The notes beneath the pieces are model-generated. The model saw only the letters and a list, made by a program, of their open reading frames with translations, did no database searches and was not told where the DNA came from. A stretch of 33,192 bases of DNA from a virus, in IMG/VR virus record IMGVR_UViG_3300037793_000035, positions 1 through 33,192 of that record; one strand, written 5' to 3'. How positions within the stretch are numbered: the stretch's first letter is position 1; each line of letters starts with the position of its first letter. Position numbers and translations under genes: made by a program. This document shows, piece after piece, positions 16,337 to 31,322 of the stretch.

Positions 16337-16396
16337 TCTCCCGTCCGGGAGACGAAAAGCATTCCACGAAGAAGCCTCACGGCTTCTTTAGCGTGG
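16337..16396. terminator. Paired hairpins between converging genes (bidirectional terminator candidate)
   Basis: Hairpin one: TCTCCC/GGGAGA (16337-16342 with 16347-16352). Hairpin two: CCACG then AAGAAGCC (16364-16376) pairs with GGCTTCTT then CGTGG (16381-16396) around a TCAC loop with a three-base bulge. The second overlaps the terminase stop. The gene to the left runs rightward and the terminase runs leftward, so both transcripts end here. U-tracts are weak on both sides. Confidence 0.5.
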
Positions 16397-19291
16397 GACC
16401 TTCTGCTTCATGGGAGTGATGATGTCTGGTCGTGGTCTGACGATCATCGAACCGAGCATGCAGTAGAGGATCGAGTGGAAAGCATCGTCCGTCTTGCCCG
16501 GCGCCTTCTTGTACTCGATCATCCTCTGCCTCTCGTTGTACTCCGAGAAGATGTTGAGGATGTCCGAGGCATGCGGCTCGATGAAGTCGTTCCAGCAGGG
16601 GAAGTCTACCTTGCGGTCCTTGAACGCTGCGAAGATATCGCTCATCACCTCCGAGCGATGGACCATGTACCGAAGCAGATGCTCTTCCCAGTACACCTTC
16701 TTTTTTTGCTTCGGGTTGTACTGGAACTTGACCACTCGATTGGGACCGAACTGTTTGATCAACCTGTCGTTCTGCCAGAAGCCACCACCATAGTCCACAC
16801 CAACCACCCGGCAGCGCATCTGGGCGATCATCTGTGCGACCTTGTCCAACTGGACGTCCGGGTCGAGGTCCTGCCCGGTGAACCTATGAATCCAGAAGAT
16901 GGAGAAGTTGTCTTTGCTACCACTGAGGTAGGTGCCGAAGCTGATCACAGTGTACGTGTTCTCACCCGTGTTCCCCTGATACGCAACGCAGCCGTTCCGC
17001 TCCGTGACGATGTATCCAGAAGGGACCTTGCAGCAGTAGACCTTCCCTGTGTAGGGCACAGTCTTGATCTTCTTGCAGGGGGTATTGAATTGGTAGTCTC
17101 TCCCAAGAGACCACATCGCCCGCCACCGTGTCTTGCGGTTCCCTTCTGCCGGCTTGTGTAGACGGACCACGCAACGCATCCCGAGTCGAATACACAGCTC
17201 CTGGAAGTCCTCGCACAATCCCTTGGACGTGGAGTAGTAAGCACCGCTCGTGCAGTTGTCTCTGGGATCCTCGTACCCGTCTCCCGCCACCATCGCATCG
17301 AACAGCACCCACAACTGGTACGGAGGGAGGTCTAGGAACTGACGAGGGATACGCTTCTGGTCACCGGGGTACCCCATGTTCTCTGCGAACCAGTGCCAGT
17401 ACTGCTTACCGCTGATCGTCCAGTTAAGGTCACCCGTCTCAGTGTTTGGGTACTCCGCGTACGGGATCCTTGCCCTCTCCAAACACTCTTTGATCTTCGC
17501 AGACGTCTCGGGAGATGCTGTCTCCCGCTGAGACATCTTGATGCAGTAGGGGAGGATCGTGTTCGGGTCTGGCTTGCTTGGGCGGAGGCACACCCCACCC
17601 TCAGAGAGGACGTAGCCCAAGAACTCGAGCCAGTCCTCCATCACGAAGACTTTGTCCTCGCTCCCAGCATATCCAGGACTCTTCGGCAGACCGGGGAGGG
17701 TGAACTCAGACTGGTCGGTGCCCACCCAATTCACATGACCAACGAACTTGATGTTGCCGCCTCGAGCCACGGTCTGTTCCGCAGGCTCAGTCTTCCACGA
17801 ATCGAGTACCTGATGACCAACCCTCATGCGGTGGGTGCCTGTGAGCATCATGTCCAACCCACCCTTGGTCTCGAAGTGGTAGAGCGGACCGTCCCACTCC
17901 TTCACTGTCCGGACCTCCGGCTCGACTAGGGACATCTCCCTCGTATCAGGGTCCCACTGCGCGACCCGATCTCCGTCATCCAGGTCCTTGAAATACTTCC
18001 AACCGTCCTGAGTGAGGATGCGGGTCTGATCGTCGTGACAGCCCCAGTCGATACCGCAGTAGACTTCCTTCCCTTGAACCACCTTCTTGAGTGACTCGAT
18101 GTCCCCGAGCCGGATGTGGGGCTGACAACATGCCTTGACCTGGGCACGAGTGATCGGACGAGTGCCGGAGTCGTAGGACAGACCCAGCTTCTCGTTCATG
18201 AACTGAGCTCTGGAGTACTGCTCCTGTGCCTCGAGCACCTCCTGCCAGTCCACCCAAGGCACCATGATCTGCGGGATGCGATAGCCCTCGAAGGTGACAC
18301 GCTCCTTGTTGTCGTCTCGTATGGGCTGCAGCGCAGCCCATCGTGCCCGAGGATCACGTGCGCTGATCTCCTGTTTGCATTTGTCGCAGATCAGCCCTTT
18401 CTGACCGATATTCTTCTCGTCCAGGACATTCCAGTGCCACGACGTGGGATCCTTCGGAGTGCCGTGGCGATCACAGGGGACAACCCACTCGTTCTGGGTG
18501 GAGAACTCCGTCCAGTACTTCTCGATCGTATTGTCATTACTCTTCGGAGTGCCGGAGTAGATGAACAGCTTGTACTTGGAGTGGAACGCACACTGCTCGA
18601 TGATCGGGATGTTGTCGATGAGGATGTCCTGGATCTCATCGATCTCGATCAGGTCAGCAGGGATACCACGGACACGGTCAGCGGTGAGGTATGCGTAGCG
18701 GAGTCTGATCTGGGAGAAGTTGATCAGCTTCTTGAAGAAGACAGCTTGGTTGATCTTGCTGGAGGTGTAGGCTTTGATCAGCGGGGATGCCTCGATGACA
18801 TCCTTCAGCCGGTCGTTGGAAAACACCTTCGCCTGCTCCGCGGAAGGAGCAACGAACAGGCAGCGGAAGTTGTTGGTCAGTGCTGAGTAGCACAGCAGTC
18901 TGTTGCCCAGCGTCGTGCTCTTCTCCACCTGCCTTCCGCACTTGAGCAGCACCTTGTCTGCCGGCGTGTCGTAGATGCGGCGGAGGTACTCACGTCCCTC
19001 GAACCTGAAGTCACTGACTGCACCAGCTTCTGGCACACGGATGGCTGTCTCTGCGAACTCGGATGGCGAGACGTTGTAGGCAAGCAGATCGATATTGGTG
19101 TCCAGCAGGTCATCTGCTGTGGGATCTGGTGGCTCCTCATCGATGCCGAAGTCGGTGGGGTTCCCATCATCATCGTAGTCGAACCACGGCTCGCTGACTG
19201 GCTTGCCATCGTGATCGACAAGGGAGTAGACCAGCGGCACGATGGATGCAGACTGTAGAACATCTGCCTCTGCTAAATTGATCGTAGCCAT
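16388..19291 (-). CDS. terL: Terminase large subunit with in-frame intein
   Basis: The 967-aa precursor contains the packaging motor. The ATPase domain has Walker A CGRQVEKST (118-126), Walker B LIEIDE (214-219) and the coupling-type motif SGTPK (246-250). A Cys cluster (C273, C302, C305) may bind zinc. The nuclease domain starts at GIDWG (413-417, catalytic Asp415), continues after the intein with TGENTYTVISFG, then VVGVDYGGG and the late acidic motif KTDDAFHS. Residues 418-774 are an intein; the spliced protein would be about 610 aa, usual for this family. The enzyme translocates and cuts DNA at the portal. TAGGA lies upstream of the ATG, which follows a 210-bp non-coding gap. Translation stops inside a terminator-like hairpin. 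Confidence 0.92.
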   Translation of the reverse strand: MATINLAEADVLQSASIVPLVYSLVDHDGKPVSEPWFDYDDDGNPTDFGIDEEPPDPTADDLLDTNIDLLAYNVSPSEFAETAIRVPEAGAVSDFRFEGREYLRRIYDTPADKVLLKCGRQVEKSTTLGNRLLCYSALTNNFRCLFVAPSAEQAKVFSNDRLKDVIEASPLIKAYTSSKINQAVFFKKLINFSQIRLRYAYLTADRVRGIPADLIEIDEIQDILIDNIPIIEQCAFHSKYKLFIYSGTPKSNDNTIEKYWTEFSTQNEWVVPCDRHGTPKDPTSWHWNVLDEKNIGQKGLICDKCKQEISARDPRARWAALQPIRDDNKERVTFEGYRIPQIMVPWVDWQEVLEAQEQYSRAQFMNEKLGLSYDSGTRPITRAQVKACCQPHIRLGDIESLKKVVQGKEVYCGIDWGCHDDQTRILTQDGWKYFKDLDDGDRVAQWDPDTREMSLVEPEVRTVKEWDGPLYHFETKGGLDMMLTGTHRMRVGHQVLDSWKTEPAEQTVARGGNIKFVGHVNWVGTDQSEFTLPGLPKSPGYAGSEDKVFVMEDWLEFLGYVLSEGGVCLRPSKPDPNTILPYCIKMSQRETASPETSAKIKECLERARIPYAEYPNTETGDLNWTISGKQYWHWFAENMGYPGDQKRIPRQFLDLPPYQLWVLFDAMVAGDGYEDPRDNCTSGAYYSTSKGLCEDFQELCIRLGMRCVVRLHKPAEGNRKTRWRAMWSLGRDYQFNTPCKKIKTVPYTGKVYCCKVPSGYIVTERNGCVAYQGNTGENTYTVISFGTYLSGSKDNFSIFWIHRFTGQDLDPDVQLDKVAQMIAQMRCRVVGVDYGGGFWQNDRLIKQFGPNRVVKFQYNPKQKKKVYWEEHLLRYMVHRSEVMSDIFAAFKDRKVDFPCWNDFIEPHASDILNIFSEYNERQRMIEYKKAPGKTDDAFHSILYCMLGSMIVRPRPDIITPMKQKVPR
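16970..18040 (-). mobile_element. Intein with LAGLIDADG-type homing endonuclease inside terL
   Basis: The 357-residue insert (precursor residues 418-774) begins with Cys418 (CHDDQTRILTQDGWKYF) and has the block B TxxH motif (LTGTHRMRV, His487). It ends VYCCKVPSGYIVTERNG then CVAYQGN, with Asn774 terminal and Thr775 as the first residue of the C-extein. The penultimate residue is Gly, not the usual His, a variation also met in phage terminase inteins. Two LAGLIDADG-like helices are visible: LEFLGYVLSEGG (about 555-566) and LWVLFDAMVAGDGY (about 660-673), so the endonuclease may be active. It splits nuclease motif I immediately after GIDWG, so uncleaved precursor should lack nuclease function. 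Confidence 0.88.
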
Positions 19292-19304
19292 GTGATCTAT
19301 CCTA

Positions 19305-19334
19305 CCGAAAGAAGTTCCAGGGTCCAGGTATAAG
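19305..19334 (+). promoter_or_regulatory. Rightward promoter-like motif in the terminase gap
   Basis: AGG-TATAAG (19326-19334) with CCGAAA (19305-19310) upstream, spacer 18. CCGAAA and GGTATAAGAA are shared with the site before the 31094 gene, which also has CCGAAA at the -35 position. It points rightward, away from the terminase start and into the structured non-coding gap. No gene in that direction has this strand, so it would drive a non-coding transcript. Confidence 0.4.
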
Positions 19335-19340
19335 AATAGT

Positions 19341-19501
19341 AGTCGCCCCGAAGGAGCTAGCCTTCATCCCTGGGGCGGAGTAGAGGGCCAGCACCCAAAA
19401 TAAAACCGCTGATATCTGAGCGGACTGCTGATGCCCTGCTGTTTAGGGTAAATGGAGGCGCCGCTCAGGTATCTAACGACCGGCCGAAAGGCCGGTTCTA
19501 C
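19341..19501 (+). ncRNA. Structured non-coding RNA candidate next to terL
   Basis: No credible ORF lies in 19292-19501. Read rightward, several helices can form. P1 is 19344-19349/19372-19377 with internal stem GAAGG/CCTTC (19350-19354/19361-19365). P2 is 19384-19393 with 19426-19437, ten pairs with a two-base bulge. P3 is CCGCT/AGCGG (19406-19410/19419-19423). P5 is ACCGGCC-GAAA-GGCCGGT (19479-19496), a seven-pair stem with a GNRA loop. In addition 19411-19423 can pair fully with 19461-19473 (13 pairs, one G-U), either as a pseudoknot from the P3 loop or as an alternative to P3. The G-U pair and GAAA loop favour the rightward strand. The candidate starts just after a promoter-like motif. Alternatives are a packaging-site DNA element or a leader of the leftward terL mRNA. 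Confidence 0.4.
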
Positions 19502-20023
19502 TTAGCCTGCAACCCTGAGTGCCACCTTCGCTACCGCTGCCTCGAGGTGGCTCTTCGGCATCGCCACACTCTTCGGCTCCGGCATGATCACCGACCAACT
19601 GTCCACCTCTGGGTAGTAGGTGATCTTCTGCTCGGTGTACTTGAAGTGTTCCGCGAAGACAGCGCGAAGGATCTCCTCGAAGCCTGGCCACCACGGATGC
19701 GCTGCCAGGTCCTTGTTCGCCTGCTGCGCCACGCGCTGCTGCATCTCGGTACGCTGAGGCTCTCGGCACTCCTTGGCGTACTGCTCCATGGCAGTGTGAG
19801 CCTCATCGTAGATCTTCTTCCGATCCTTCTTGAAGAGGTGGAAGATCAACAGACCATCTTTCAGTCCGAACGATCCGACCACCTCCCCCTTCTCCACGTC
19901 GAAGAAATCGGGGATGGCTTCCTTCAGGTTGTCCGCGAGGTTGTCCTGCGGTGCTGCCTCCAGTCCCTTCTTCTCCGCATCGGAGATGAAGAAGGGGAGC
20001 TTCTCTACTTTAGCCTCAGCCAT
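19502..20023 (-). CDS. Unknown protein upstream of terL
   Basis: The start is the second ATG (20021-20023), because GGAGG lies exactly six bases upstream; the first ATG would leave no spacing. The 173-aa protein (MAEAKVEKLPFFISDAEKKG) has an alpha/beta part (EVVGSFGLKDGLLIFHLFKK), a long Glu/Gln-rich helix (EAHTAMEQYAKECREPQRTE) and an aromatic C-terminal region (HPWWPGFEEILRAVFAEHF). It overlaps the previous gene by eight bases. The location between a DNA-binding-like protein and terL suggests a packaging or head role, not proven. No family recognised. Confidence 0.5.
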   Translation of the reverse strand: MAEAKVEKLPFFISDAEKKGLEAAPQDNLADNLKEAIPDFFDVEKGEVVGSFGLKDGLLIFHLFKKDRKKIYDEAHTAMEQYAKECREPQRTEMQQRVAQQANKDLAAHPWWPGFEEILRAVFAEHFKYTEQKITYYPEVDSWSVIMPEPKSVAMPKSHLEAAVAKVALRVAG

Positions 20024-20903
20024 GATCATCCTCCATCATTCGATCAGCCATGGTCACCACACCATCGGTGCCTTCACCTGACTGACTGAAGTTCGGCCCT
20101 GCCACCTCCTCGATCGCCGGGACAGCTTCCTTGTCCTTGCGGAGGCGGAACTTCTCGAACGCCGCGAGCACGTCCTTCAGTGCCACGTCGCTCTGACGCA
20201 TCTCAGACTCGGCTGCCCTGATCACATCCATGTAGTTCTTCATCATCTTGGAGTGCGCCAGTGATGCAGGCTGACGTTCTGTCTCTAAGACTTTCATGAA
20301 TGCGATGTCCCTCATCCTCCGGGCGACGGTGCCGGTGTTCAGTCCTGTCGGAGGACCAGACATCCCGGCTACCCACGGCACCAGCTTGCCCGCCATGTCC
20401 GGCGCGGCTTTTAGTATCGTGATCCGATCGAATGCTCCCGGCCTATCGTCCAGGAACTCAGCCCACTCGTGCATTGAGAGCAGGCTCTTGTTCCAGAAGT
20501 AATGACCGAAGGCACGGACGCCGTCCGGAGTGAGTGTGATCCCATGGTGCGAGTTCAGTCTGCTTACGACCTCTTCCAACCGCAGTGGACTCAGCAGGAG
20601 CTGCTCCACATCAGCACGCAGCTGGGGCACTGCGATGATCTCGTAGGCTTCCTTGACAGCACCGTTCGGGAACCAAAGGTCAGCGATCTTGTTCTGTCTC
20701 AGGTACTCCTTGCACTCAGCATCGGTGTCGTCCCAGGGATCTGGGCGCTCACCCATCTCGTTCTCCAGCTGCTCGATGTAGCGACTGGAGATGCCCTCCA
20801 TCCCGTACTCCTCCATCATGCGCAGAATGGTGTTCGTATCGAACTTCCTCTGCGAGATGAGGTACTTGATGAAGTTCTCACTCGGGCTGCGTGAATAGGC
20901 CAT
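20016..20903 (-). CDS. Candidate terminase small subunit or DNA-binding protein
   Basis: The 295-aa protein is helical. Near residues 100-135 the segment LSPLRLEEVVSRLNSHHGIT followed by LTPDGVRAFGHYFWN has a helix-turn-helix-like layout. Before it is a long helical N-terminal part (FIKYLISQRKFDTNTILRMM), and after it a helical region with an oligomerisation-like Lys/Glu stretch. Small terminase subunits bind DNA through an N-terminal helix-turn-helix and lie just upstream of the large subunit. Here one gene intervenes, and the protein is longer than typical, so the call is tentative. It starts three bases after the previous stop. Confidence 0.4.
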   Translation of the reverse strand: MAYSRSPSENFIKYLISQRKFDTNTILRMMEEYGMEGISSRYIEQLENEMGERPDPWDDTDAECKEYLRQNKIADLWFPNGAVKEAYEIIAVPQLRADVEQLLLSPLRLEEVVSRLNSHHGITLTPDGVRAFGHYFWNKSLLSMHEWAEFLDDRPGAFDRITILKAAPDMAGKLVPWVAGMSGPPTGLNTGTVARRMRDIAFMKVLETERQPASLAHSKMMKNYMDVIRAAESEMRQSDVALKDVLAAFEKFRLRKDKEAVPAIEEVAGPNFSQSGEGTDGVVTMADRMMEDDHG

Positions 20904-30926: not shown

Positions 30927-31093
30927 GTGACCCTCCGATCTTCGAGAACTCCAAGGCTCTCTGCGGATGGTGTGTCCTAGACAACCTACCAGATGATCGG
31001 TTGATCAGACAACCGAAATACTTTCAGCAGCTTGGTATAAGAAGAGGGTAGAGGAAAAGCAGGAACTAACCCACAGCCCAGAAGGAGTGACTC
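30927..31093. promoter_or_regulatory. Divergent control region between polymerase and rightward cluster
   Basis: This 167-bp gap separates divergent genes. It holds two direct copies of AGACAACC (30979-30986 and 31007-31014). An inverted repeat GGTTG...CAACC surrounds TGATCA just before the second copy. The rightward promoter candidate begins at the edge of that copy, so a repressor bound there could control it. For the leftward polymerase gene only a weak candidate is visible (TTGTCT at -35 and a poor -10), so its promoter is unclear. Confidence 0.4.
31013..31041 (+). promoter_or_regulatory. Extended -10 promoter candidate for the rightward cluster
   Basis: TGG-TATAAG (31033-31041) has five of six -10 matches plus the TGn extension. 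CCGAAA at 31013-31018 is at the -35 position with a 17-base spacer. Transcription would start near 31048, about 46 bases before the ATG at 31094. It is the best of four similar rightward sites. Confidence 0.55.
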
Positions 31094-31249
31094 ATGCCCT
31101 TTGGCCCCGAAGACCCCATCGATGAGACCATCGACAGCGCCCCGTCGATTGACGATGGGCTGAGTGATTTTGAGGACCTGATCGATGGCGAGATCGATCA
31201 CGCGGACGATGACAACGTCGTCACCTATGAAGATGACGAGGATGATTGA
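31094..31249 (+). CDS. 51-aa highly acidic protein
   Basis: The ORF starts at ATG 31094, with AAGGAG six bases upstream. It gives MPFGPEDPIDETIDSAPSID, then DDGLSDFEDLIDGEIDHADD, ending VVTYEDDEDD. More than a third of residues are Asp or Glu and there is no Lys or Arg. It is the first gene after the rightward promoter, divergent from the RNA polymerase gene. Very acidic small phage proteins sometimes mimic DNA or bind host polymerase or nucleases; this is only a possibility here. Confidence 0.6.
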   Translation: MPFGPEDPIDETIDSAPSIDDGLSDFEDLIDGEIDHADDDNVVTYEDDEDD

Positions 31250-31322
31250 AATCGTTCTCTGGTCCTTCCTCTCTACGGTACTCATCATCCTGGTTGACAC
31301 GCTGAGATGTATGAGTGCCTAG
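31233..31322 (+). CDS. Possible 29-aa single-pass membrane peptide
   Basis: An overlapping ORF (ATG 31233, or 31242 for a 26-aa form) encodes MTRMIEIVLWSFLSTVLIIL followed by VDTLRCMSA, a clear hydrophobic helix. It overlaps the end of the 51-aa gene and the start of the next gene in other frames. No good ribosome binding site is visible, so it might be translated only by coupling, or be chance. Confidence 0.25.
   Translation: MTRMIEIVLWSFLSTVLIILVDTLRCMSA

What the first reader, a model, noticed from the sequence alone, without database searches (positions are those of the whole stretch)
19305..19501. Structured RNA candidate with alternative 13-bp pairing next to the large terminase gene
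In a window where genes overlap or touch, a 210-bp gap stands out. On the rightward strand it has a promoter-like motif, two compound stems, a GAAA-capped seven-pair hairpin, and a 13-base segment (19411-19423) fully complementary to 19461-19473 that competes with a local hairpin or forms a pseudoknot. CCGCT is duplicated (19406, 19461), as in switching RNAs. The location beside terminase invites comparison with phi29 packaging RNA, although that RNA has a different context. It may instead be a packaging (pac/cos) DNA site.
Basis: partly seen in the sequence, partly recalled or inferred. Interest (0 to 1): 0.75.

Follow-up and report, generated by a model that had tools for sequence, protein, structure and literature searches.

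The report
Structured phage RNA beside terminase gene
The gap next to this uncultured virus's DNA-packaging gene very probably encodes a small folded RNA with its own viral promoter; related viruses keep the shape and the promoter while the letters drift, but what the RNA does is not yet known.

Summary
Gap 19292-19501 separates a leftward gene from the leftward large terminase (16388-19291) and folds far better than chance on the + strand (z -4.5).

The rightward-RNA reading gains strong support. GGTATAAG (19327-19334), with an AA-containing -35 box about 17 nt upstream, occurs at this spot in 30 distinct relatives. Across eight related records it points away from terminase 73 times against 12, and elsewhere it precedes genes with ribosome-binding sites. 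At terminase it instead opens a noncoding, strongly folding stretch: 5' hairpin, long central hairpin, and a GC-rich 3' hairpin, mostly GNRA-type. In 20 relatives of the window's clade the mean z is -4.7, against -0.7 for coding controls. A sister clade has a different RNA in the same slot, with a conserved internal loop and clear covariation (7 of 11 pairs changed on both sides). No Rfam family matches.

Nothing ties it to packaging except position, and some relatives lack it. The switch, phi29-pRNA and cos readings are unsupported; a pac site is not excluded. The G-U versus A-C test does not distinguish RNA-level from DNA-level selection.

Verdict: a new structured phage ncRNA, transcribed divergently from terminase. 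The mechanism I find most likely, inferred only, is a shape-dependent, protein-binding RNA made from the phage's early/middle promoter class.

The parts
19306..19334 (+). Promoter: -35 box CGAAAG (19306-19311), 17 nt spacer, -10 GGTATAAG (19327-19334)
   Evidence: GGTATAAG exact in 26 of 30 distinct relatives at this place, AA of the -35 box in 29 of 30; 73 vs 12 strand bias against the terminase direction in eight related records; precedes SD+start-codon genes elsewhere
19341..19501 (+). Predicted structured noncoding RNA, about 160 nt (start inferred 6-8 nt after TATAAG, 3' end inferred at the last hairpin)
   Evidence: z -4.53 on + strand; same architecture in 20 relatives, mean z -4.7 vs -0.66 in coding controls
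19343..19378 (+). 5' hairpin with loop motif GCUAGCC
   Evidence: fold; TAGC in the same stretch in 15 of 30 relatives vs 3.5 expected from shuffles (relatives are not independent)
19411..19473 (+). Central long hairpin: 19411-19423 paired with 19461-19473, inner stem between
   Evidence: fold; an equivalent long hairpin with unrelated sequence in most window-clade relatives
19406..19423 (+). Competing 5-bp local hairpin CCGCT/AGCGG; on the - strand it is followed by TTTTATTTT and looks like a weak terminator
   Evidence: T-run not conserved in most relatives
19479..19496 (+). 3' hairpin ACCGGCC-GAAA-GGCCGGT next to the stop codon of the convergent gene
   Evidence: equivalent GC-rich hairpin in all 20 window-clade RNAs, loops mostly GAAA/GTAA/GCAA on the + strand
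16388..19291 (-). Large terminase, carrying an intein-like insert at about residues 420-780
   Evidence: phrog_675 E 2.5e-58, GpA_ATPase; insert absent in relatives; weak intein matches
19502..20029 (-). Upstream leftward gene (175 aa, no family), convergent with the RNA
31034..31250 (+). Second copy of the same promoter (31034-31041) with an SD and a 53-aa acidic ORF; supports promoter identity and direction

Best explanation
The gap encodes a structured noncoding RNA of about 160 nt, transcribed rightward, divergently from the large terminase, from the phage's own GGTATAAG promoter class and ending at a GNRA-capped GC-rich hairpin. Shown computationally: the promoter motif, its genome-wide direction, the noncoding character, and a fold conserved while the sequence drifts. 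Inferred: that transcription starts near 19341 and stops at the 3' hairpin; and that the RNA works in trans through its shape, as a binding site or scaffold for a phage or host protein, rather than by base-pairing, because stem sequences are nearly free to change while architecture, the 5' loop motif and (in the sister clade) an invariant internal loop flanked by covarying helices are kept. I put the RNA itself at about 0.8 and the protein-binding mechanism at about 0.35.
For: GGTATAAG with AA of a -35 box at this position in 30 distinct relatives. In eight related records it runs opposite to terminase 73 times vs 12; the reversed-pattern control gives few matches in either orientation. Elsewhere it precedes SD-bearing genes whose first 50 nt have mean z +0.25, while at terminase the first 50 nt have mean z -1.78. 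In distant relatives the same promoter drives a 120-157 aa protein gene starting 3-7 nt after TATAAG, fixing direction and +1. Whole-RNA folds in 20 relatives: mean z -4.7 vs -0.66 for coding DNA. Window: z -4.53. Sister-clade core: 7 of 11 pairs with changes on both sides, covariation score 0.545 vs 0.206 shuffled, highest at slide 0. RNA-bearing loci cluster on the terminase tree. RNA body about 55% identical (near background) between phages with 84% identical terminase DNA, yet both fold at z about -7.6.
Against: No transcript data. G-T and A-C mismatches inside helices are equally common (18 vs 18 in helices shared by both strands; 9 vs 2 in E. coli RNA controls), so there is no sign that RNA pairing on one strand is what is selected; this fits DNA-level structure, or function on both strands, equally well. 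The window clade could not be aligned as a whole, so its covariation is argued from independent folds rather than a formal test; a few members (L024, L008, L089) fold only weakly. The 3' hairpin has no clear U-tract. Nothing identifies a bound protein.
Confidence: 0.68

Rival explanations
1. DNA-level site: the inverted repeats are a packaging (pac) or replication-start site beside terminase, and the promoter is incidental or makes a primer RNA.
For: Position beside terminase; no G-U over A-C excess; in most relatives both strands fold comparably well (mean z -4.7 and -4.3).
Against: A directional promoter of the phage's own class points into it; sequences of the repeats are not conserved, as a protein-recognised DNA site would need; GNRA-type loops dominate on the + strand only; many related contigs run through the gap, so it is not a fixed end; no clear GC-skew switch in the window.
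Confidence: 0.15
2. Leftward leader: the folds act in the late mRNA running from the upstream gene into terminase, as an attenuator or barrier with segments 1:2 antiterminator and 2:3 terminator.
For: On the - strand CCGCTCAGATATCAGCGG is followed by TTTTATTTT, the only terminator-like site found in 19200-19600.
Against: Weak 5-bp stem; found once vs 0.3 expected in shuffles; T-run after the stem absent in most relatives; - strand fold weaker in the window (z -2.83).
Confidence: 0.08
3. Packaging RNA analogous to phi29 pRNA, needed by this terminase.
For: Always found beside terminase in the loci seen; stems drift while the fold is kept, as is known for phi29-type pRNAs (own knowledge).
Against: No Rfam match; terminase is an ordinary GpA-type large subunit; L025, L058, L063 and L157 have no such gap at terminase; loci were fetched via terminase, so adjacency is partly by construction.
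Confidence: 0.07
4. Cis-acting antisense or insulator: rightward transcription into the 3' end of 19502-20029 and away from terminase limits late read-through early in infection.
For: Promoter direction and convergence with the upstream gene; 3' hairpin sits at the stop codon of that gene.
Against: Does not explain conserved folds and the invariant internal loop of the sister clade.
Confidence: 0.12

Closest known systems
phi29 packaging RNA (pRNA, RF00044)
   Same: Small structured phage RNA; fold kept while sequence drifts; encoded by a tailed phage
   Different: No Rfam match; different fold (three hairpins in a row); GpA-type terminase; some relatives lack it; no packaging evidence
GOLLD and ROOL phage-associated RNAs
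   Same: Structured phage RNAs of unproven role
   Different: Those are far larger with conserved sequence (own knowledge); no Rfam match here
Phage small regulatory RNAs such as P4 CI RNA or P1 c4 (own knowledge)
   Same: Short, structured, promoter-driven phage RNA
   Different: Those act by base-pairing to phage targets; no target found or sought here, and stem sequences are not conserved

Membership tests
phi29-type packaging RNA | Match to the Rfam covariance model RF00044 | tested here: not met
   No gathering-level match in the window; at E up to 5 only an unrelated 16-nt match in the gap
phi29-type packaging RNA | Helix joining 5' and 3' ends, three-way junction and two interlocking loops | tested here: inconclusive
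   MFE shows a 5' hairpin, central hairpin and 3' hairpin, with only a short closing helix near the 3' end; pseudoknots and intermolecular loops not modelled
phi29-type packaging RNA | Required for DNA packaging | not testable with these tools
   needs a cultured relative
Riboswitch or attenuator leader | Lies upstream of a gene on the same strand | tested here: not met
   The + strand RNA runs into the 3' end of the convergent gene 19502-20029(-)
cos site / fixed genome end | Assemblies break or end there | tested here: not met
   Many related contigs span upstream gene, gap and terminase without a break
pac site | Headful packaging begins there | not testable with these tools
   no reads or termini available
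Structured noncoding RNA gene | Own promoter on the same strand | tested here: met
Structured noncoding RNA gene | Fold conserved with compensatory changes | tested here: met
   Formally for the sister-clade core; for the window clade only through independent folds and a five-sequence subgroup in which 5 of 38 pairs show changes on both sides
Structured noncoding RNA gene | RNA-level selection on one strand (G-U over A-C) | tested here: inconclusive
   18 vs 18; controls 9 vs 2

The most novel reading that the evidence does not exclude
A trans-acting RNA component of the packaging or head-filling machinery in a large-phage lineage with an ordinary terminase, standing in the slot where more distant relatives encode a small protein from the same promoter: an RNA-for-protein replacement at the terminase locus.
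Probability: 0.07. Interest if true: 0.9.

Novelty: new member of a known kind. Interest (0 to 1): 0.55.

Why it matters
Phage genomes rarely spare 200 bp for noncoding DNA. A promoter-driven RNA kept at one spot in some 30 uncultured phages, with a fold that outlives its sequence, is a good candidate for a new phage RNA family absent from Rfam. The sister clade's invariant internal loop gives a concrete handle for finding a partner, and the same slot switching between protein gene and RNA gene across the lineage is an unusual comparison. If it proved to act in packaging it would be a second, independent packaging RNA.

Tried and rejected
Rfam at gathering and relaxed thresholds on the window and a sister locus: nothing. 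DNA-level search in cultured phages: nothing; protein search of terminase in cultured phages: only 29-36% identity over part of the protein, plus intein-type matches to DNA methylase genes. Reading CTTATACC as a leftward terminase promoter: rejected, since the complementary GGTATAAG is the oriented motif genome-wide. Leftward terminator/attenuator: T-run not conserved. Strand test by G-T vs A-C: uninformative. Sister-clade motif scan in all viral contigs: 23 stretches; eight (four distinct phages) lie beside this terminase, the rest look like chance or unrelated sequence. A short leaderless peptide reading (..EDSHHTIP..) seen by eye in the L086/L087/L120 subgroup does not extend to others. The neighbour protein of distant relatives has no family and is not found elsewhere in the RNA-bearing records searched. 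Literature searches found no earlier description (titles and abstracts only). No covariance model was built: window-clade sequences are too divergent for a plain alignment.

Full report
Context. The window is a 33 kb virus record. Most genes run leftward. The gap 19292-19501 lies between a 175-aa gene of unknown family (19502-20029, -) and the large terminase (16388-19291, -), so it is upstream of terminase. The described features are present; the 13-base pairing has one U.G wobble, and the gap folds better than shuffles mainly on the + strand (z -4.53 vs -2.83).

Promoter. Reading the terminase-upstream region of related phages showed an octamer that is GGTATAAG on the + strand. Over 30 distinct loci TATAAG is invariant, GG nearly so, and AA of an upstream box is present in 29. 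In eight large related records the octamer lies opposite to terminase 73 times and along it 12 times, while the reversed octamer used as a control is rare (terminase direction). Elsewhere it stands before Shine-Dalgarno-bearing genes on the same strand. A second copy in the window precedes a small acidic ORF on +. In distant relatives the same promoter at terminase drives a homologous 120-157 aa protein whose start codon lies 3-7 nt after TATAAG. These agree that the promoter fires rightward into the gap. That this class is early or middle is an inference from its opposition to the terminase/structural strand.

Noncoding and structured. At terminase in the window's clade and its sister clade, what follows is noncoding. 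In the window clade (23 distinct loci) the order is: 5' hairpin starting at or within a few bases of the predicted +1, linker, long central hairpin, GC-rich 3' hairpin beside the stop codon of the convergent gene, with GAAA, GTAA or GCAA loops in most. Length is 124-242 nt in the 20 measured. Mean z is -4.7 (+) and -4.3 (-) in those 20, -0.66 for coding controls. The first 50 nt average z -1.78, against +0.25 for 28 other GGTATAAG transcripts. Sequence turns over fast: RNA bodies of L084 and L094 are 55% identical (near background), terminase DNA 84%, and both fold at z about -7.6.

Covariation. The sister clade (L029, L098, L099, L100, L103, L110, L136; also L007 and L068 with a variant promoter) has a different RNA with an invariant internal loop, CTAGYTG ... 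CATCCGA, between two helices. On seven sequences 90.8% of cells pair, 7 of 11 pairs change on both sides, and the covariation score is 0.545 against 0.206 for shuffles, falling away when the strands are slid (RNAalifold agrees). In a five-sequence subgroup of the window clade a nine-pair long-range helix between the 5' hairpin region and a segment near the 3' end is nearly invariant. The window clade as a whole was not formally tested.

Distribution. On a terminase tree, window-clade RNAs fall in one well-supported set of 27 rows with two RNA-less exceptions (L025, L058); the sister-clade RNAs cluster too. L007 and L068, first counted as lacking it, do carry the sister-clade RNA. L063 and L157 lack the gap, so the RNA is not obligatory beside this terminase; it might lie elsewhere in their genomes, which are fragments here.

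RNA or DNA? If RNA pairing on + were selected, G-T mismatches should exceed A-C ones inside helices. They do not (18 vs 18 in shared helices, 73 vs 76 in all). E. coli RNA controls gave 9 vs 2 and 100 vs 69. The numbers are small, but this is the main unexplained point: it allows DNA-level structure or function on both strands. The directional promoter and the one-sided GNRA loops are why I still prefer RNA.

Mechanism. Drifting stems with constant shape and short conserved loop segments suggest recognition by a protein rather than base-pairing. The partner is unknown, and the protein-binding step is inference. Packaging is suggested only by position, and the loci were gathered through terminase, so adjacency is partly by construction.

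Novelty. No Rfam match and no cultured relative with more than about 36% terminase identity. Phage structured RNAs of unclear role are a known kind; this looks like a new family of that kind.

Noticed in passing
window 16388-19291 (-), residues about 420-780: The terminase carries an intein-like insert: relatives without it are about 600 aa, the segment matches DNA methylase genes of mycobacteriophages (probably through a shared intein) and weakly the AceL NrdHF intein (6zgq).
   Followed up: partly
window 31034-31250 (+): Second GGTATAAG promoter with SD and a 53-aa very acidic ORF, divergent from a 2061-aa probable tape-measure gene.
   Followed up: partly
L119 784-1270: An HNH-endonuclease-like gene (read by eye) is inserted between the RNA promoter and terminase.
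   Followed up: no
L101, L102, L106, L107, L122, L126: Terminase is interrupted near residue 103-110 by roughly 1.2-1.5 kb (intein or intron not determined).
   Followed up: no
L137, L139, L141, L144, L148, L150, L151: Same divergent promoter slot holds a 120-157 aa protein gene whose start codon is 3-7 nt after TATAAG, i.e. apparently leaderless; no family match.
   Followed up: partly
5' hairpins of the RNAs and leaders of other GGTATAAG transcripts: TAGC/TAGCC 18-28 nt after TATAAG recurs (15 of 30 loci vs 3.5 in shuffles), also in some coding cousins; possibly a shared leader signal.
   Followed up: partly
L185 from 1500: A GGTATAAG in the 137 kb record is followed by a sequence without an obvious nearby start codon; a possible second noncoding transcript.
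   Followed up: no
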